50,352 nucleotides of DNA from an uncultured Erysipelotrichaceae bacterium (GTDB lineage Bacteria > Bacillota_I > Bacilli_A > RFN20 > CAG-826), in NCBI GenBank assembly GCA_902796125.1, contig CADBNT010000003.1, forward strand, positions 1 through 50,352. The letters are read 5' to 3'. The position numbers and the translations under genes are program-made. The stretch's first letter is position 1, and the number at the start of each line of letters is the position of its first letter. The notes under the pieces are model-generated. The model saw only the letters and a program-made list of their open reading frames with translations, did no database searches and was not told the origin of the DNA. Below, piece after piece: positions 12,369 through 22,622 of the stretch.

Positions 12369-13223
12369 ATGAATAAAAATGTCAAATTAGTATTAACCTT
12401 ATCTTCAGTAGCAATTTTACTTTGCTCTTGCCGAGGCGGAAGAGGACGTGGCTCAAGTGTTGTTCCACCAACAAGTGGTGATGTACCAACATCTGTAGAT
12501 CCAGGAACATCTGTTGAACCTGCAACGTCAACTGATCCAGGAGATTATTACGCTTCTATAGATTCAAGCCTCATGGGCCAAGACTTAGTAAATGCTTTAA
12601 ACGCTCTTAATAATACAAAAAGAACGTATCTAGTCGGTTATGATGCTATGTTAAATAAACCTGCTCAAGGTTTTTATGTTACAGATCCAGGAGAATCTCG
12701 TAATAAATATACACTTACTTCTTTCTATTCTGGCACTGAAAGAAAAGGCACAAGTGGAATGAACCGTGAACACGTTTGGCCAAAATCACATGGTGGCAAC
12801 TTAGTTGAAGACGATATTCATATGCCAAGACCAACTATTACAGCTGAAAATGGCTCACGTGGTAATTCTTTCTATGTTGAAGGAATGAAGACAGAACATA
12901 ATGGTTGGGATCCAGCCATGGAAGACTTCGGTCTAGAATCATATCGTGGCGATTCAGCCAGAATTATCTTCTATTGCGCGATTGCTTCAACCCAATTAAA
13001 GATTATTGATTCTGCTACATCTACCGGTTCTAACCAAATGGGCAAATTATCTGATTTGTTAAAATGGAATCTTAAATATCCTGTTTTAGAAAGAGAAAAC
13101 ATTCGTAATGAAGGCGCTCAATCATTACAGGGTAATAGAAATCCATTTATCGACCACCCAGAATACGCATGCCGTATTTGGGGCAATACAAATTCAACAA
13201 CAAAGCAAATTTGTGGGATGTAA
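12369..13223 (+). CDS. Secreted lipoprotein with endonuclease I (EndA/NucM) domain, copy 1
   Basis: A 284-residue protein with a lipoprotein signal (residues 1-20; lipobox LLCSC), then an Arg-Gly run RGGRGRG and a Pro/Thr/Ser linker of about 30 residues. The catalytic domain begins near residue 58 (YYASIDSSLMGQDLVNAL). The His-Me-finger core is NREHVWPKSHGGNLVEDDIH, with the general-base His in EHVWP and an acidic/His metal pair in DDIH. SARIIFYCAIA and NPFIDHPEYACRIWGN complete the family. These enzymes cut DNA and RNA outside the cell. The anchored form suggests a role in nucleotide scavenging or competitor-DNA breakdown (inference). It shares its ends with the next gene, showing a tandem duplication. 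Confidence 0.9.
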   Translation: MNKNVKLVLTLSSVAILLCSCRGGRGRGSSVVPPTSGDVPTSVDPGTSVEPATSTDPGDYYASIDSSLMGQDLVNALNALNNTKRTYLVGYDAMLNKPAQGFYVTDPGESRNKYTLTSFYSGTERKGTSGMNREHVWPKSHGGNLVEDDIHMPRPTITAENGSRGNSFYVEGMKTEHNGWDPAMEDFGLESYRGDSARIIFYCAIASTQLKIIDSATSTGSNQMGKLSDLLKWNLKYPVLERENIRNEGAQSLQGNRNPFIDHPEYACRIWGNTNSTTKQICGM

Positions 13224-13228
13224 TTAAT

Positions 13229-14302
13229 ATGAAAAAGAACGTTAAATTAATTGTTACAGTTTCATCTATCGCACTTTTATTATGTGCGTGTAGAGGCGGG
13301 CGTGGGAGAGGCTCTGAAAGTTCAATCCCTTTACCATGGGTTAGTAGTTCTACAACCATTGTTCCAACAACCGGAAGTGCACCAACTACCGGTGGTACCA
13401 CTCAAGGTGGATCAAGCGGGACAACTGGCACATCTCAAGCTAGTAGCACAACAGGAACAACACAAAGCGGATCGAGTAGTACGACATCATCTTCACATGG
13501 AACCAGTTCTACTCAATCTAGTTCTTCATCGCATACTACAAGTTCTACCCAGCCAACCTCTATTACTCCTACGTCGCAATCCAGTGATGTCCAAGCATAC
13601 TATGCTTCTATCAGCGATTCACTTTCAGGAACCTCTTTACTAAATGCTCTAAATTCTTTAAATAATTCAAAGAAGACAAGGAATGTAACTTATAACGGGA
13701 TGAAAACATTCGCTGCAAAATGCGATATTGATCCTGATGGTTCAGGCAAAATCATTGGTTTTTATGATAATGCGAAAATCGGCCCGGCTTGGGATAGTGC
13801 CGCCACATGGAATAGAGAACACGTTTGGCCTGATTGTAGAGGAGGAAACCTTGTTGAAGGTGATGCACATATGCCTAGACCTGCATCTGTGTCTGTAAAT
13901 AGTGACCGTGGAAGTAAGGGGTTCGGAACCGAATCATATGACCCAGGACAATATGTGGCTTATTATAGGGGAGTTTGCGCCCGAATTATCTTTTATTGTG
14001 CTATTGCAAACAAAAATTTGAAGCTAATTGAAGACCCGATTAATTACAGTGGTGGAAGTCCAAGTGATTCAATGGGATGTTTAAGCGATATGCTTAGATG
14101 GAATCTTCAATATCTCCCATCAGACACATCTTTTACTGGTGGTAACGATCTTGCACGTCGAGTTGAATTGAATAGAAATGAAGTCATCCAAAAAGATTCG
14201 GCTGGTCAAGGAAATAGAAATCCATTTATTGATCACCCAGAATACGCCTGCCGTATTTGGGGTAATACAAATTCAACCACAAGATCCGTTTGTGGAATGT
14301 AA
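13229..14302 (+). CDS. Secreted lipoprotein with endonuclease I domain, copy 2, with long Ser/Thr linker
   Basis: Starts at ATG 13229, 5 bases after the stop of copy 1; the frame is open a further 20 codons upstream, but those lie inside copy 1 and lack a signal peptide. 357 residues: a signal with lipobox LLCAC, again RGGRGRG, then a Ser/Thr/Gln-rich linker of about 90 residues, much longer than in copy 1. The nuclease domain begins near YYASISDSLSGTSLLNAL with the core NREHVWPDCRGGNLVEGDAH and the same C-terminal block NPFIDHPEYACRIWGNTNST. No strong ribosome site is visible, so translation is probably coupled to copy 1. The region after the core has diverged more than the ends, suggesting altered specificity. 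Confidence 0.9.
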   Translation: MKKNVKLIVTVSSIALLLCACRGGRGRGSESSIPLPWVSSSTTIVPTTGSAPTTGGTTQGGSSGTTGTSQASSTTGTTQSGSSSTTSSSHGTSSTQSSSSSHTTSSTQPTSITPTSQSSDVQAYYASISDSLSGTSLLNALNSLNNSKKTRNVTYNGMKTFAAKCDIDPDGSGKIIGFYDNAKIGPAWDSAATWNREHVWPDCRGGNLVEGDAHMPRPASVSVNSDRGSKGFGTESYDPGQYVAYYRGVCARIIFYCAIANKNLKLIEDPINYSGGSPSDSMGCLSDMLRWNLQYLPSDTSFTGGNDLARRVELNRNEVIQKDSAGQGNRNPFIDHPEYACRIWGNTNSTTRSVCGM

Positions 14303-15919: not shown

Positions 15920-15945
15920 GACTCAGGCAAACGCTTGAGTCTTTT
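15920..15945. terminator. Terminator between convergent metG and the SDR-DUF3810 gene
   Basis: A 9-bp stem GACTCAGGC / GCTTGAGTC (one G-T pair), loop AAAC, with A7 on the left and TTTT on the right; usable from both sides. The T tract overlaps the stop codon of the minus-strand gene. Confidence 0.85.
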
Positions 15946-18106
15946 ATTTATTTAAGTAGTTATAAAGCAATAGAGATTGGTATGGAGAATAACCATAAAT
16001 ACGGTAAATTATTTCCCCACCTTCTTCAGTTTCTTCAACGTCATCGGTATCGATATAGGCACTTGTATTTTCATTTGCAGAAATCTCCAAATATAAGTTA
16101 TTAAAGAATTCTCCTATATCACCCAAAAGATCGTGTTCTTTCCAGTATTTATTTATATAAGAAGCATCTCCCCAGATTTTGCTATCAATACCTTTAATAA
16201 AATCGGTGTAATCGGATTCAATATTTGTCGCTTTTACTAAATTTCCAAGTGAGAAAAATGTAGCCATATATGCAGAGTATTTGATGTATGAATTATCGCT
16301 ATTTAAACATACATACGCAGCAACTAAATTAGCATCTTCTTCCCTCATTACGCCTTTACTATGCGCTAGCTCGTGAGCGAGTGTTACGGGTATCTCTGCA
16401 GCAGGGGCGTCAATGTTGTAATTAGGCTCATATGTAGCTGGAAATGTAATGCCTGTAATCTGTAATTGGCTATAAAGCCAACTAAGCATATACATAGGTT
16501 TTCCGTTTAAAGTAAATTCATGATAATAATCTTGTCCGTCTAGTAGTTTGAATTCATCTTTTACAAGTCTATTTAATTCATCCCAAGAGTATGGATTAAT
16601 AACAGATCCATCCTCTCTAAATGTAAGTTCGTTTGCTACTTTGTTAAAGTCCTCTTCATAATACATAGCCATTTCTTTATAGATGGATGTACCTTCAAAG
16701 ATTTCTTCGTATTGCGGGACAGGTGGTCTATCACGATAATAGCCTAATCCAAACGTCATTGCATAACATGTAAGAGCGCTTGCAATTACAATGCCTAAAT
16801 CAATGATTCTAGTGAATGATTTTTTAATACCTTTTTTGGAAGTGTGAATAATGAAAAATACTAGCCATAAAATTAAAGAAATTACTATTAAGAAGAGTGA
16901 TATTTCAAATATGGAAAATGGTATCCATGTAAAAGCGTGTCCAAAGATGAAAGCAAAGAACTTTCCAACAGTTCTTGTGTAGCCCTCAGACACACCTGGA
17001 ATATATCTAATTAGGAACAATAAAAGGAATGTAAATAATCCTCCTCCTAAAGTAATTAATCTTCCTCTTAATGTGATCTTTCTTCTTCCTTTAAGACAAC
17101 GTTTATCTTTAGCAATAATGTCGTCGCACATGTCATAAATAGACTCTTCGACAGGACGTGCTTTAAACCCTAATTCGTTTATGGCCTTACTGCTATCGAA
17201 ATAATTGTTGTTTTCAATAGTTCGAATAGCAGTTTTTGTGTATAAAGGAGTGATGTGGAATAGTTTGCAGAAAAATGAATAGATAGGTGCGACGAATTTT
17301 ATAAACCAACACGGCAGTTTTAGGCGCAATTTTTTGCGGTTGTAATGTTCAGCAATAATGTTCAAAAAATCAGATATTTGCATGGATTTTGCACTAATTA
17401 TGTAGTTATTTCCAAGCTTACCTTTATCAAGCGCTTTTAAAGAAATTTCGGCTAAATCTCTGACGTCAATTAAACTATAGGATCCGTCCTTAACTGAGGC
17501 AGGAATATGGCCTTTTAGGAAAGCTTTCACTAATGAAGTAAAATCACCACACTTAGGATCGTCAGGACCAATAATTCCAGATGGATGGATAGTAATTGCG
17601 TTGAGCCCTTTTTCAGCCATTTGCTTGATATACTTTGCAGTCATGGACTTACTAAAGGCATAGCATCCTTTTTCAGGATTATCTTCAAATGGATTAGATT
17701 CATTAATGCTTTGATTCTTGCCTATATTTTTAAAGGCTGTTGTGGAAGATATATAAAGAAACTTTTCTACTTTATTTCTATAAGAAATATCAGCAAGATT
17801 TTTTGTTCCAAAATAGTTTGTGTCGAAAATAGCTTTTTCAAATTTATCATTAATTGAGATATATGCAGCGCAATGAATAACTATTTGTTTAACGTCATCG
17901 GATTTTTTTGTACTTAAAAATCTTTCGCAGGCATCTTTGTCTCGAACGTCTCCAAAAACAAGAGACACTTTATCTTTAATTTTTGAAATACGTTCAGTTT
18001 TTTTTCGAATTAAAAGAACAACTTCCTCATTTTGTTTTAGAAGAAGCTTTAATATTTCGTTTCCAACCCATCCTGTCGCACCAGTAAGGTAATAGATTTT
18101 ATGCAT
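15944..18106 (-). CDS. Fusion of an NAD-dependent epimerase/reductase (SDR) with a membrane DUF3810 metallopeptidase-like domain
   Basis: One frame of 720 residues. Residues 1 to about 335 are an extended short-chain dehydrogenase: YYLTGATGWVGNEILKLLL (TGxxGxxG), FGDVRDKDACERF, a Tyr-x-x-x-Lys site in CYAFSKSMTAKYI and AITIHPSGIIGPDD. From about 345 three membrane segments follow (LITLGGGLFTFLLLFLI; SIFEISLFLIVISLILWLVF; LGIVIASALTCYAMTFGL), then an outward domain with VTLAHELAHSKGVMREEDAN, whose HExxH is at residues 578-582, as in DUF3810. Both halves look intact. The first half should be cytosolic and the second extracytoplasmic. The function of DUF3810 is unknown; a role in envelope sugar or lipid processing is inference only. 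The start codon has no ribosome site and a promoter adjacent. Confidence 0.8.
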   Translation of the reverse strand: MHKIYYLTGATGWVGNEILKLLLKQNEEVVLLIRKKTERISKIKDKVSLVFGDVRDKDACERFLSTKKSDDVKQIVIHCAAYISINDKFEKAIFDTNYFGTKNLADISYRNKVEKFLYISSTTAFKNIGKNQSINESNPFEDNPEKGCYAFSKSMTAKYIKQMAEKGLNAITIHPSGIIGPDDPKCGDFTSLVKAFLKGHIPASVKDGSYSLIDVRDLAEISLKALDKGKLGNNYIISAKSMQISDFLNIIAEHYNRKKLRLKLPCWFIKFVAPIYSFFCKLFHITPLYTKTAIRTIENNNYFDSSKAINELGFKARPVEESIYDMCDDIIAKDKRCLKGRRKITLRGRLITLGGGLFTFLLLFLIRYIPGVSEGYTRTVGKFFAFIFGHAFTWIPFSIFEISLFLIVISLILWLVFFIIHTSKKGIKKSFTRIIDLGIVIASALTCYAMTFGLGYYRDRPPVPQYEEIFEGTSIYKEMAMYYEEDFNKVANELTFREDGSVINPYSWDELNRLVKDEFKLLDGQDYYHEFTLNGKPMYMLSWLYSQLQITGITFPATYEPNYNIDAPAAEIPVTLAHELAHSKGVMREEDANLVAAYVCLNSDNSYIKYSAYMATFFSLGNLVKATNIESDYTDFIKGIDSKIWGDASYINKYWKEHDLLGDIGEFFNNLYLEISANENTSAYIDTDDVEETEEGGEIIYRIYGYSPYQSLLLYNYLNK

Positions 18107-18112
18107 GATAAT

Positions 18113-18141
18113 ATGATAGCAAATAATTTAATAAGTGTCTT
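18113..18141 (-). promoter_or_regulatory. Promoter of the SDR-DUF3810 gene, placing the transcript start at the ATG
   Basis: On the minus strand AAGACA (18141-18136), a 17-base spacer and TATCAT (18118-18113). Only 6 bases separate the -10 box from the ATG at 18106, so the mRNA should begin at or next to the start codon. Confidence 0.55.
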
Positions 18142-18151
18142 CGTATACGAA
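18140..18151. promoter_or_regulatory. Perfect 12-bp palindrome between divergent genes, candidate operator
   Basis: TTCGTATACGAA overlaps the last two bases of the -35 box of the minus-strand promoter and sits about 40 bases before the esterase start. A dimeric repressor site is plausible; no regulator is encoded beside it. Confidence 0.4.
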
Positions 18152-18190
18152 AACAAACATTATTACGCTTTGTTATGTTATTCTATTCAT

Positions 18191-19120
18191 ATGTCGATAT
18201 TAAAACTCCCTTTAAGCTTTGCGAAAAGAAACATGGCGAAAGGTGAAAAGAAATTTAATAATTCCCATCGAAGCTATGGAAACTATAACGTAAAAAAAGA
18301 TCTTTCGTATGTCGATGATGGTTTAAGAGAACATAAGTTGGATATTTATACCCCAGTCAAAGATTGGAACGGAATAACCATCTTAACTATTCATGGTGGG
18401 GGCTACGTTCATGGTTGGAAAGACACAAACTCAGTTTTTATTTCTTGGTTTGTTAATAAAGGCTTTTCTGTTGTATCGATGAATTATCGCTTAGCAAGCC
18501 AATTTGATGACGTTGCATTTCCGGATCAAGTTAGAGATGTTATTGCTGTTTTAAAGTTTATCGAACATAACTGGAAATATTATGGAATAAGCAAAGATAA
18601 ATTATGCATCATGGGAGATTCTTCGGGTGGGCATCTTTCACTCATAACTGATATAGTCTTCCACGATAAAGAAGCACAAGATTTCTATAAAATAGAAAAA
18701 TTGCCAAACGTCAAGATAAATGCAGTTGCCTTAAACTCTCCGATGTATGACTACGCAGAAGTTGTGAAATTAGGTCAAAAACTATTAACCAAAAAGTCAT
18801 GTAGAGACCTTTTCTCAAAGAACTATTTAGACCAAGAATACGTAAAACTAAATAATCCAAAATATTACCTTCATAAGAAGATTCCTCTTGAGCCATTGTT
18901 TGCTAATTCAGCAGCGAAGGATTTCTTTAATAATCAGACTCGTTTGCTTAAAAAAGATTGTGACAAACTCGGTTATAGTCTTGAATACATTTTTGAGCTT
19001 GTAGCAGATAAAAGAGTAGGCCATGTATACAATCACTTTATTCTCGATGACGAAGAAGGAATTAGATGCAATGAAGCAATGGTTAATTTCTTCATAAAAA
19101 ATGTGAATGTTGATAAATAA
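18191..19120 (+). CDS. Alpha/beta hydrolase, acetyl-esterase-like
   Basis: About 309 residues from ATG 18191. A longer frame opens at 18101, but that start lies inside the divergent gene and adds a sequence unlike the family. Seen: the oxyanion motif ILTIHGGGYVHGW (HGGG), the nucleophile elbow CIMGDSSGGHLSL (G-D-S-S-G) and a C-terminal His in GHVYNHFILDD; an acid residue between them is likely. This is the hormone-sensitive-lipase or BD-FAE type of esterase acting on short-chain or acetyl esters. It has no signal peptide, so it is cytosolic. There is no Shine-Dalgarno site before either start. A well-formed promoter for the polyamine unit lies within its last codons and the following gap. Confidence 0.85.
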   Translation: MSILKLPLSFAKRNMAKGEKKFNNSHRSYGNYNVKKDLSYVDDGLREHKLDIYTPVKDWNGITILTIHGGGYVHGWKDTNSVFISWFVNKGFSVVSMNYRLASQFDDVAFPDQVRDVIAVLKFIEHNWKYYGISKDKLCIMGDSSGGHLSLITDIVFHDKEAQDFYKIEKLPNVKINAVALNSPMYDYAEVVKLGQKLLTKKSCRDLFSKNYLDQEYVKLNNPKYYLHKKIPLEPLFANSAAKDFFNNQTRLLKKDCDKLGYSLEYIFELVADKRVGHVYNHFILDDEEGIRCNEAMVNFFIKNVNVDK

Positions 19121-19138: not shown

Positions 19139-19147
19139 TATTTGCAT

Positions 19148-21775
19148 ATGAAAAAGCTAGATCAGAGTAAAACACCATATTTAGACGCACTAAAGAAATA
19201 TGTAAGTGCTGATGTACTTCCTTTGGACGTTCCAGGACACCATATGGGAAACGTCTCTAATAAGTTAAAAACATTTCTTGGAAGTCAAACATATAGATGT
19301 GATATCAATGCTCCAATTGGAATGGATAACTTAGCAAACCCATCAGCGGTTTTAAAACAAGCCGAAGATTTATTTGCTAATTTTGCCCATGCGAATCACA
19401 GTTTCTTTTTAATTAATGGCACATCAAGCGGAATCCTCGCTATGATTATGACTGTATGTAAAGCTAATGATAGAATCATTCTTCCACGTAACGTCCATAA
19501 ATCAATTATTAGTGCTTTAATTCTTTCAGGTGCATCGCCTGTGTACATCATGCCTCGCATCGATAGCGCGCTTGAAATCGCAAACCAACCATCTGTGGAT
19601 GATTATGTTAAAGCAATGCAAAAATATCCTACTGCTAAAGCAGTGTTTGTAATTAACCCTACTTATTTTGGTGCTGTCGCTGATTTAAAACGCATTGTTA
19701 AAGAAGCTCACGCTAGAGGAATGAAAGTTCTTGTTGATGAGGCTCATGGTGCGCATTACTACTTCGATAGACAAGGTCCTGTTTCTGCAATGGATGCAGG
19801 AGCAGATATGGCTGCTGTTAGTTTTCACAAAACAGGCGGAAGCCTAACTCAATCTAGCGTTCTTTTACTTAAATCTAACGACATTGATCCAGCTATTGTT
19901 CAAAAGACACTCAATATTATTAACACAACATCTCCATCAACACTTTTAATGGCGTCAATTGATGCAGCACGACAATATGTTGCAACGAAAGGTGCCGAAA
20001 ACATGGCAAGAGTTCATGCTCTTTCCAAATATGTTCGCGATGAGATTGCTAAAATCAAAGGATTTAAGCCATGTAATAAAAGTCATTTCCTTAGTAGAGG
20101 ATGCTTTGACTATGATGATACAAAATTAGTTATTCAACTAGAGCATCTAGATATCAATGGTTTTGATTTATATCATCTCTTAAAAGATCAATACAATATT
20201 CAGATGGAGCTTGCTGAAACATATGTTGTAATGGGAATTTTAGCCATTGGTTCTAGCAAAGCTCAAATGGTTAGACTTGTTAAAGCGTTAAAGGATGTTT
20301 CAAAGAAACACTATAACAAGAAATATGATTATCAACACCATGCTTTTGGTGTCGACTTCCCATTCCAAATTGTACGCCCACGTTCTGCGTATCATGCGCC
20401 AGGAATTAAGCTTCCAATTAGCAAAGCTATCAATACAATTTCTAAAGAATCAATTATGATTTATCCACCTGGAATCCCATTAATTGTTCCAGGAGAAGTT
20501 TTCACTAAAGAACTCGTCGATAGAATAAAAGAATATAAGAAGTTAGGTGTAACCATTTTAAGTGACTATGGTGCTGATGTTATCAATGCCATCGATGTCG
20601 AAAAATGGCCATATTACCACGTTTATAAAAACAAACTTAACGACTATCTTGAAAAGAGACTTACCACACCTCGTGGTGACGATTATGAAATGCCATTTGA
20701 AGGTGGTAAACACAGTGGCACAATTGTTCTTCTTCCATATCGTAAAGATACTTGGAGAAAGAATGCTGAACCAGCCATTAAGAACTATAAAGAAGTCATT
20801 ACAGCTATTGCGAAATATGAGCCTGTTTATGTTGGAATTTCACCAAGAATTTATGACAAAGTCATAAATAGATTTTCAAATATTAAGAATGTTTATCCAA
20901 TAAAGATTAAATACAATGACGCCTGGGCAAGAGATAATTCTCCTATCTTTGTTACAAACGGTAACAAGATGAGAATAGTTGATTTTAGATTCAATGCCTG
21001 GGGTGGCGAAGTCGATGGACTTTATTCTAACTACAAGGATGATGATTTATTAACCAAAAACCTCGCCAAGAAGTTTGGTGTCGAACGTTATTATCTTGAT
21101 GATTTCATCCTTGAAGGCGGAAGTATCCATGTCGATGGAGAAAAGACCTGTTTAGTCACAAAAGCCTGTCTTTTATCCAAAGGTAGAAACCCACTTTTAA
21201 GCCAACTTGAAATCGAAGAAACATTGAAGATTTACTTAGGTGTTAGTAAGGTTATTTGGCTTGATCATGGTATTTATGAAGATGAAACAAATGAGCATAT
21301 CGATAATATGGCATGTTTCATTAGACCTGGAGTTATCGCTTTAGCATGGACCACCGATAGAAGTGATCCTCAATACGCTTATTCAAAAGCAGCATATGAT
21401 GTGCTTAAGAATTCAACTGACGCTATGGGCCGTAAGTTTGAAATCGTTAAGATTAAGCTTCCAAAGCCACTTTATATGTCAAAGAGTGAGGCTAAAGGAA
21501 TTAAGAATAGTAGATATGACGCCAAGCCAAGAACCGAAGGTTCTAGACTTGCTGCCTCATATATCAACTTTTACCAAGGCGAAAAATTCGTTATTCTTCC
21601 AGCCTTTGGAGTTCCTGAAGATGCTCTTGCTAAAAAACAACTTCAAAAACTCTATCCAGAAAAAGACATTATCCAAATCGAATCTAAAGAAATATTGCTC
21701 GGCGGTGGAAACATTCACTGTATCACTATGCAAATTCCATATAATGAGGAGTTTATAAAGAAAAATGAAAATTAA
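19148..21775 (+). CDS. Bifunctional fusion: arginine decarboxylase (PLP fold I) plus agmatine deiminase
   Basis: About 875 residues from ATG 19148 (an in-frame TTG at 19142 is less likely). Residues 1 to about 500 are an Orn/Lys/Arg decarboxylase of the Bacillus SpeA type: LPLDVPGHHMGN, INGTSSGILAMIM, LVDEAHGAHYYF and the PLP lysine in VSFHKTGGSLTQSS (K228). From about 506 (TTPRGDDYEMPFE) the rest matches agmatine deiminase from its normal N-terminus: AWARDNSPIFV (D596), EGGSIHVDG, NEHIDNMACF (H717) and the catalytic Cys in LGGGNIHCIT (C858). Each half has the normal full length. The decarboxylase should make agmatine and the deiminase N-carbamoylputrescine plus ammonia. The amidase for the next step overlaps downstream, supporting arginine rather than lysine or ornithine as substrate. 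Fusion by misassembly is unlikely since the frame is clean and codon use is uniform. Confidence 0.93.
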   Translation: MKKLDQSKTPYLDALKKYVSADVLPLDVPGHHMGNVSNKLKTFLGSQTYRCDINAPIGMDNLANPSAVLKQAEDLFANFAHANHSFFLINGTSSGILAMIMTVCKANDRIILPRNVHKSIISALILSGASPVYIMPRIDSALEIANQPSVDDYVKAMQKYPTAKAVFVINPTYFGAVADLKRIVKEAHARGMKVLVDEAHGAHYYFDRQGPVSAMDAGADMAAVSFHKTGGSLTQSSVLLLKSNDIDPAIVQKTLNIINTTSPSTLLMASIDAARQYVATKGAENMARVHALSKYVRDEIAKIKGFKPCNKSHFLSRGCFDYDDTKLVIQLEHLDINGFDLYHLLKDQYNIQMELAETYVVMGILAIGSSKAQMVRLVKALKDVSKKHYNKKYDYQHHAFGVDFPFQIVRPRSAYHAPGIKLPISKAINTISKESIMIYPPGIPLIVPGEVFTKELVDRIKEYKKLGVTILSDYGADVINAIDVEKWPYYHVYKNKLNDYLEKRLTTPRGDDYEMPFEGGKHSGTIVLLPYRKDTWRKNAEPAIKNYKEVITAIAKYEPVYVGISPRIYDKVINRFSNIKNVYPIKIKYNDAWARDNSPIFVTNGNKMRIVDFRFNAWGGEVDGLYSNYKDDDLLTKNLAKKFGVERYYLDDFILEGGSIHVDGEKTCLVTKACLLSKGRNPLLSQLEIEETLKIYLGVSKVIWLDHGIYEDETNEHIDNMACFIRPGVIALAWTTDRSDPQYAYSKAAYDVLKNSTDAMGRKFEIVKIKLPKPLYMSKSEAKGIKNSRYDAKPRTEGSRLAASYINFYQGEKFVILPAFGVPEDALAKKQLQKLYPEKDIIQIESKEILLGGGNIHCITMQIPYNEEFIKKNEN

Positions 21776-22622
21776 AGTTGCTATCACTCAAATGAGTTGC
21801 TCATCAAACTACGATGAGAACATTTCTAAAGCAGAAAAATTAGTTGAAGAAGCTGCTAAAAAAGGCGCAAATATCATACTTTTGCAGGAATTATTCTCAA
21901 ATTTATACTTCTGCCAAGTTGAAGATTATGATAAATTTGCCCTTGCAGAAGAAAGAGAAAAATCGCCTCTTATCAAACACTTAAAAGCTGTTGCAAAGAA
22001 ATATGGTGTTGTTCTTCCTATTTCCTTTTTTGAGAAATCTGGAACCAACTATTTTAATTCTTTAGTGATGATTGATGCTGATGGAAAAGATCTCGGCTTA
22101 TATAGAAAGACTCATATTCCAACAGGCCAATGTTATGAAGAAAAATTCTACTTCTCTCCAGGTGATACTGGCTTTAAAGTTTTTAAGACAAAATTTGGTA
22201 GAGTAGGCATCGGAATTTGCTGGGATCAATGGTTCCCTGAAACAGCAAGAATTTTAGCACTTGAAGGTGCAGAAATTATTCTTTATCCAACCGCCATTGG
22301 AAGTGAGCCTGTTTTAGTCAGAGACTCAATGCCACACTGGAGAAATACGATGTGCGGTCATGCGGCTGCAAACATTATTCCTGTCTGTGCTTCCAACAGA
22401 GTTGGAAAAGAAGTAGCTGGTGACTCATCAATGGTCTTCCAAGGCTATTCTTTTATCGCTAACCAATATGGTGAAGTCGTTGAAGAAATGGACCGTAAAG
22501 AAGAAGGTGTGAAAGTTCACGAATTCGACCTAGAAGAAATCGATAAAGAAAGAGTATCTTGGGGTGTGTTTAGAGATAGACGTCCTGAGTGCTATGGAAA
22601 GATAAAAAAGTATTCAAAATAA
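21765..22622 (+). CDS. aguB: N-carbamoylputrescine amidase
   Basis: A 285-residue nitrilase-superfamily enzyme that hydrolyses N-carbamoylputrescine to putrescine, CO2 and ammonia. The Glu-Lys-Cys triad is visible: ILLQELFSNLYFC (E42), GLYRKTHIPTG (K115) and GIGICWDQWFPE (C152). The blocks YEEKFYFSPGDTGF, EIILYPTAIGSEP and PHWRNTMCGHAAAN are those of AguB rather than of general amidases. The ATG overlaps the end of the fused decarboxylase-deiminase by 11 bases, with a GAGGAG site 13 bases upstream, so the two are translationally linked and make a complete arginine-to-putrescine pathway in two genes. Spermidine synthase genes are not seen here. Confidence 0.95.
   Translation: MKIKVAITQMSCSSNYDENISKAEKLVEEAAKKGANIILLQELFSNLYFCQVEDYDKFALAEEREKSPLIKHLKAVAKKYGVVLPISFFEKSGTNYFNSLVMIDADGKDLGLYRKTHIPTGQCYEEKFYFSPGDTGFKVFKTKFGRVGIGICWDQWFPETARILALEGAEIILYPTAIGSEPVLVRDSMPHWRNTMCGHAAANIIPVCASNRVGKEVAGDSSMVFQGYSFIANQYGEVVEEMDRKEEGVKVHEFDLEEIDKERVSWGVFRDRRPECYGKIKKYSK

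What the first reader, a model, noticed from the sequence alone, without database searches (positions are those of the whole stretch)
15944..18106. Epimerase-like SDR fused to a membrane DUF3810 domain with HExxH
SEEN: residues 1-335 carry TGATGWVG and a YxxxK site; residues 345-720 carry three membrane helices and an extracytoplasmic HELAH. Both parts look complete. KNOWN: SDRs of this kind act on nucleotide sugars, lipids or flavonoid-like ketones; DUF3810 proteins are membrane proteins with a zinc-protease-like motif and no assigned function. INFERENCE: the fusion couples a cytosolic NAD(P)-dependent reaction with an enzyme on the other side of the membrane, which could give the first functional clue to DUF3810, for example in envelope lipid or polymer processing.
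Basis: partly seen in the sequence, partly recalled or inferred. Interest (0 to 1): 0.55.

Follow-up and report, generated by a model that had tools for sequence, protein, structure and literature searches.

The report
Epimerase fused to outward-facing membrane metalloprotease
In one uncultured gut-type bacterium, two neighbouring genes that its relatives keep separate (a cytosolic epimerase-like enzyme and a membrane protein with a zinc-protease-like domain outside the cell) read as a single protein; this is probably a real but one-species architecture that gives only a weak clue to what the membrane protein does.

Summary
In detail: minus-strand frame 15944-18106 encodes 720 aa without a stop, an extended SDR (Epimerase, residues 6-236) followed by DUF3810 (376-677) with HELAH at 578-582. 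The fusion is lone: 1 of 279 genomes of the order has it, and 0 of 80 named DUF3810 loci. But the gene order is not lone. In four relatives (genera g18 and g32) the same SDR and DUF3810 genes lie side by side at the same syntenic place, abutting (TAA|ATG, same frame) in two of them. The nine same-genus loci that I read keep DUF3810 there without the SDR. So the fusion most likely arose by loss of stop and start between an inherited gene pair. AlphaFold models the DUF3810 half at pLDDT 95: membrane helices plus a soluble domain whose best, weak PDB matches are mostly gluzincin metallopeptidases; charges put it outside the cell. A second DUF3810 fusion, to an unrelated soluble domain (AH_C), also joins an upstream neighbour, so fusion to DUF3810 is not specific evidence for a shared SDR pathway. 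The envelope-pathway idea remains untested. New domain architecture, modest interest. A single-base indel error in the assembly cannot be excluded.

The parts
15944..18106 (-). Fused gene, 720 aa: SDR (N-terminal) + DUF3810 (C-terminal)
   Evidence: single open frame in contig C3 of G000
17102..18106 (-). SDR half, residues 1-335 (Epimerase PF01370 at 6-236)
   Evidence: one clade with the separate SDR genes of G018/G045/G066
18062..18085 (-). TGATGWVG nucleotide-binding motif, residues 8-15
17648..17662 (-). YxxxK catalytic motif (YAFSK), residues 149-153
   Evidence: YxxxK kept in two g18 relatives (YAITK)
17069..17101 (-). Junction, residues 336-346 (RCLKGRRKITL): place of the lost stop and lost start
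   Evidence: alignment with G045/G066, where TAA|ATG lies here; no in-frame ATG/GTG/TTG from codon 327 to 362
17009..17071 (-). Membrane helix 1, residues 346-366
   Evidence: model helix, hydropathy
16832..16912 (-). Membrane helix 2, residues 399-425
16754..16828 (-). Membrane helix 3, residues 427-451
16076..16981 (-). DUF3810 match, residues 376-677
16361..16375 (-). HELAH, residues 578-582; H, E and H invariant in 78 aligned sequences
16340..16342 (-). Glu 589, invariant, candidate third zinc ligand (HExxHxxGxxxE)
   Evidence: (column E252 of the 338-720 numbering)
18101..19120 (+). Divergent neighbour: alpha/beta hydrolase (BD-FAE / Abhydrolase_3); recurrent neighbour of DUF3810

Best explanation
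The gene is a fusion of two neighbouring genes, SDR and DUF3810, that were inherited as a pair at this place, most likely since before the genera g1, g18 and g32 split. In this species the SDR stop and the DUF3810 start were lost, so one polypeptide is made: an NAD(P)-dependent extended SDR in the cytosol, then membrane helices, then an outward-facing zinc-dependent peptidase domain of gluzincin type (HExxH plus probably Glu 589). The halves most likely keep their separate activities; the fusion fixes their ratio and tethers the SDR to the membrane. Shown: frame, domains, synteny, conserved motif, high-confidence model. Inferred: topology, zinc binding, peptidase activity, SDR activity, and that the fusion is not an assembly error. 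The SDR substrate and the peptidase target are not known.
For: Full Pfam matches. Same two genes side by side in G018, G045, G066 and G032, with gaps of -26, 0, 0 and +32 bp. Same syntenic surroundings (alpha/beta hydrolase, decarboxylase-agmatine deiminase, amidase) in g1, g18 and G032. Window and g18 SDRs form one clade, 100/99. H578, E579, H582, G585 and E589 invariant in 78 sequences. Model of residues 338-720: pLDDT 95, pTM 0.93. VIA-align rows 1-5 are two DUF885-like or putative lipoprotein entries, aminopeptidase N, PZ peptidase and LTA4 hydrolase, Z 5.5 to 3.4, rmsd 4.9-6.9, 135-180 aligned residues; IrrE, DPP III and AM0627 lower down (that these are gluzincins is recalled knowledge). 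AH_C, also a soluble domain, is fused at the same end of DUF3810 in G118, which fits an N-terminus in the cytosol.
Against: Only one genome has the fused form. An indel error cannot be excluded: in frame +1 a TAA follows at nt 1037 and an ATG precedes at nt 971, so a wrong base count could have joined an overlapping pair like that of G018. Foldseek found no PDB match at E <= 0.001 (best 0.89), and a Z of 5.5 is within the range that may be chance. No PDB sequence relative of DUF3810 (best E 0.67). The SDR half of the full-length model is of low confidence, with residues 290-344 under pLDDT 50, on only 3 rows that cover it.
Confidence: 0.66

Rival explanations
1. Assembly or sequencing error: the genome really has two overlapping genes as in G018, and one wrong base count joins the frames.
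For: Single draft genome of 107 contigs; frame +1 offers an ATG before and a TAA after the junction; G018 has such an overlap.
Against: A wrong base (substitution) alone would not do: no in-frame ATG/GTG/TTG lies between codons 327 and 362, so DUF3810 would have no ordinary start. The linker codes basic residues (KGRRK..RGR), as expected just inside the membrane.
Confidence: 0.2
2. SDR and DUF3810 work on one pathway (for example an envelope component that the SDR helps to make and that the external domain processes), and the fusion is selected for channelling or co-localisation.
For: Pair kept side by side in three genera although both proteins have diverged to about 40% identity.
Against: The SDR is found in 1 of 24 listed same-genus genomes, while 11 of the 24 have DUF3810; 76 of 80 named DUF3810 loci have no relative of this SDR in the flanks held (up to 4 kb a side); another DUF3810 is fused to an unrelated domain.
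Confidence: 0.2
3. Neutral joining: stop and start were lost by drift in a small genome where neighbouring genes often abut, without functional coupling of the halves.
For: In the same family: AH_C-DUF3810 in G118, with AH_C ending 1-2 bp before DUF3810 in 6 of the 9 other loci that have AH_C; AH_C joined to a flavodoxin-like domain in L117; CoaD-like plus alpha/beta hydrolase in one frame in G032.
Against: Both halves remain intact, so selection still acts on each; this does not separate the two readings.
Confidence: 0.45

Closest known systems
DUF3810 (PF12725) stand-alone proteins of Bacilli and Clostridia
   Same: Same helices, HExxHxxGxxxE, 28-43% identity to the C-terminal half
   Different: Mostly 360-450 aa with no SDR in the frame; function unassigned; no paper in the searched library holds DUF3810 or PF12725
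Extended SDRs of the HpnA / epimerase type (TIGR03466, PF01370); solved relative 3wj7 'putative oxidoreductase'
   Same: Rossmann motif, YxxxK, whole-length match
   Different: 187.8 bits against the HpnA cut-off of 367.65, so not HpnA; here joined to a membrane domain
AH_C-DUF3810 fusion protein of G118 (L107, L167)
   Same: Soluble domain fused to the N-terminus of DUF3810, from a gene that abuts it in relatives
   Different: The partner is an allophanate hydrolase C-terminal (cyclotransferase-like) domain, not an SDR
Gluzincin metallopeptidases (M1, M3, M49, IrrE-like; labels recalled)
   Same: HExxH followed by a conserved Glu; weak fold matches headed by them
   Different: Short spacing to the candidate third ligand (HExxH-x6-E); membrane helices in front; fold relation not established (Foldseek best E 0.89)

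Membership tests
Extended SDR (PF01370) | TGxxGxxG nucleotide-binding motif near the N-terminus | tested here: met
   TGATGWVG, residues 8-15
Extended SDR (PF01370) | YxxxK catalytic pair and whole-domain profile match | tested here: met
   YAFSK 149-153; 106.3 bits, cut-off 20.9, profile 2-238 of 240
Extended SDR (PF01370) | NAD(P)-dependent redox or epimerase activity | not testable with these tools
   needs assay
HpnA (TIGR03466) | score above the curated cut-off | tested here: not met
   187.8 bits against 367.65
DUF3810 (PF12725) | score above gathering cut-off over most of the profile | tested here: met
   175.9 bits against 28, profile 1-295 of 311
Gluzincin metallopeptidase | HExxH motif, conserved | tested here: met
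   H578, E579, H582 invariant in 78 sequences
Gluzincin metallopeptidase | Glu as third zinc ligand on the following helix | tested here: inconclusive
   E589 invariant and at the start of the next model helix (helix 252-264 of the part model); geometry could not be measured
Gluzincin metallopeptidase | zincin fold | tested here: inconclusive
   best VIA Z 5.5 to 3o0y, 5.4 to 3iuk; Foldseek nothing at E <= 0.001
Gluzincin metallopeptidase | zinc binding and peptide hydrolysis | not testable with these tools
   needs assay

The most novel reading that the evidence does not exclude
SDR, DUF3810 and the divergent alpha/beta hydrolase form one envelope module in which a cytosolic SDR makes or modifies a compound that an outward-facing membrane metallopeptidase of a new gluzincin family depends on or processes; the fused protein is the most compact form of that module and the first functional handle on DUF3810.
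Probability: 0.15. Interest if true: 0.55.

Novelty: new variant of a known kind. Interest (0 to 1): 0.3.

Why it matters
DUF3810 is spread through Bacilli and Clostridia and rings in a Bacteroides control genome, without an assigned function. The work here gives it a confident model, an invariant HExxHxxGxxxE motif, a likely outside location, and an SDR partner kept in three genera. It also shows that two fusions put soluble domains on the same end, which supports the topology but warns against reading the SDR as a pathway partner.

Tried and rejected
First genome-contig scan with the whole fused protein found no relative; the second, with alignment A1, gave 80 loci (156 relatives found, best 80 kept). 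G276 looked like a second pair (match 1-427 with one TAA), but reading the locus showed an SDR alone and no DUF3810 after it: rejected. Alignment A3 forced SDR rows onto DUF3810 and was not used. Sequence search of DUF3810 in PDB gave only chance-level matches, best to a snake metzincin (E 0.67). Neighbour clusters of DUF3810 in 80 loci show no common function; the most frequent is the alpha/beta hydrolase, in 11 of 80. PADLOC gave nothing, and PHROGs only an epimerase and a reductase family. A single origin of the SDR-DUF3810 adjacency including G032 is supported by synteny but not by the SDR tree (54/0), and in the DUF3810 tree G032 lies apart from g1 and g18. One long branch (G032_C31) was kept in the SDR tree. 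Of the 80 loci, the structure alignment A2 used 77 (L142, L149 and L151, cut by contig ends, were left out). The GC3 figure for the DUF half printed was computed out of frame and is not used. Promoter scan: no more sites than in shuffles. An alternative genetic code was not needed, since the frame is open under table 11.

Full report
What was checked. The frame 15944-18106 lies on the minus strand, is open from ATG to stop over 720 codons under table 11, and carries two near-complete domains: Epimerase (PF01370) at 6-236 and DUF3810 (PF12725) at 376-677, E 2.1e-30 and 1.6e-51. It is the only DUF3810 copy in its 1.0-Mb, 91.5% complete draft genome, G000.

Is the fusion found elsewhere? In the family, 51 of 146 genomes have DUF3810 over the Pfam cut-off; two of those frames exceed 500 aa, G000 (727) and G118 (532). 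With the whole protein as query over 279 genomes of the order, only G000 carries both halves in one open frame. In the samples of class (30 of 395 genomes over the cut-off) and phylum (27 of 392) no other frame over the cut-off exceeds 416 aa (the samples overlap). The named records are mostly MAGs labelled Erysipelotrichaceae, Bacillales, Bacilli, Clostridia and the like.

Where the fusion comes from. In G045 and G066 (genus g18) the SDR stop TAA is followed at once by the ATG of DUF3810 in the same frame; in G018 the two genes overlap by 26 bp as called; in G032 (g32) they are 32 bp apart. All lie beside the same genes as in the window: divergent alpha/beta hydrolase, Orn/Lys/Arg decarboxylase-agmatine deiminase fusion, nitrilase-type amidase (in G032 the SDR is split over two contig ends, which were read apart). 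In the nine same-genus DUF3810 loci that I read (G006, G037, G059, G077, G108, G138, G144, G213, G214) DUF3810 stands at the same place without SDR, 11 of 24 listed g1 genomes match at all, and only G000 has the SDR. Window and g18 SDRs form a clade with 100/99 support. The neighbours fit vertical descent: amidase 82-88% identical to g1 and 72-75% to g18, while DUF3810 is 34-42% identical to both groups and the SDR 40-42% to g18, so both halves evolve much faster than their neighbours. The simplest history is an ancestral SDR-DUF3810 pair, loss of SDR in most of g1, and fusion in this species. No in-frame ATG, GTG or TTG remains between codons 327 and 362, so both the stop and the start have gone; a single substitution error is thus not enough to explain the joined frame, though a single-base indel error could be, because frame +1 has an ATG at nt 971 and a TAA at nt 1037.

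What the DUF3810 half is. On an alignment of 78 sequences, Y456, G552, H578, E579, H582, G585, E589, A592 and N669 (window protein numbering) are invariant. AlphaFold gives pLDDT 95 and pTM 0.93 for residues 338-720. Foldseek finds nothing significant in the PDB (best E 0.89). VIA-align on 956 of the top Foldseek chains gives weak matches headed by 3o0y (Z 5.5, rmsd 5.6, 177 residues), 3iuk (Z 5.4, rmsd 5.5, 177), aminopeptidase N (Z 3.6), PZ peptidase and LTA4 hydrolase (Z 3.4), with IrrE, DPP III and AM0627 below. Unrelated proteins also appear from Z 3.1 down, and the tool warns that Z under 8 may mean little. That so many are HExxH + Glu peptidases (recalled knowledge) agrees with the sequence motif HExxHxxGxxxE, and I therefore read the domain as gluzincin-like, not as a proven gluzincin. 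The charge pattern (9 K+R before helix 1, 3 after it, 4 in the loop between helices 2 and 3) places the N-terminus, hence the SDR, inside and the HExxH domain outside. The full-length model is poor for the SDR (mean pLDDT 72.8 overall; 290-344 under 50) because only three rows cover it.

Does the fusion tell the function? It is weak evidence. In the same family, G118 has DUF3810 fused to an AH_C domain, and of the 9 other named loci with AH_C, 6 have it ending 1-2 bp before DUF3810. So two unrelated soluble domains have joined the same end of DUF3810 from the gene just upstream. This points to a general process (abutting genes in small genomes) and to an N-terminus that tolerates cytosolic cargo, not to a specific partnership. 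The most frequent neighbour of DUF3810 among the 80 loci is the alpha/beta hydrolase, in 11. No paper in the library holds 'DUF3810' or 'PF12725' (search listings only). In a survey of HExxH proteins (PMC3650047, searched for passages) DUF3810 is not in the main text.

Verdict.

Noticed in passing
window 19142-21775 (+), followed by 21765-22622 (+): Orn/Lys/Arg decarboxylase (OKR_DC_1) and agmatine deiminase-like domain (PAD_porph) in one 877-aa frame, followed by a nitrilase-type amidase: the likely arginine-to-putrescine route in two genes. The 869-885 aa frame is kept in g1, g18 and g32. Two polyamine papers (PMC8503589, PMC10407285), searched for passages, showed other decarboxylase fusions, not this one.
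   Followed up: partly
L107:3593-5122, L167:6505-8034 (genome G118): AH_C (allophanate hydrolase C-terminal domain) fused to DUF3810, 509 aa; in relatives AH_C, sometimes joined to a flavodoxin-like domain, abuts DUF3810.
   Followed up: partly
L226:888-2297 (genome G032): Cytidylyltransferase-like (CoaD-like) domain and alpha/beta hydrolase in one 469-aa frame, another joining of neighbours in this family.
   Followed up: partly
window 15944-18106 against neighbours: SDR and DUF3810 diverge far faster (34-42% identity) than the genes beside them (60-88%) between the same genomes; cause unknown.
   Followed up: no
window 12369-13223 and 13169-14302 (+): Two tandem Endonuclease I genes with lipoprotein-like N-termini and Ser/Thr-rich linkers, overlapping in the frame list.
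   Followed up: no
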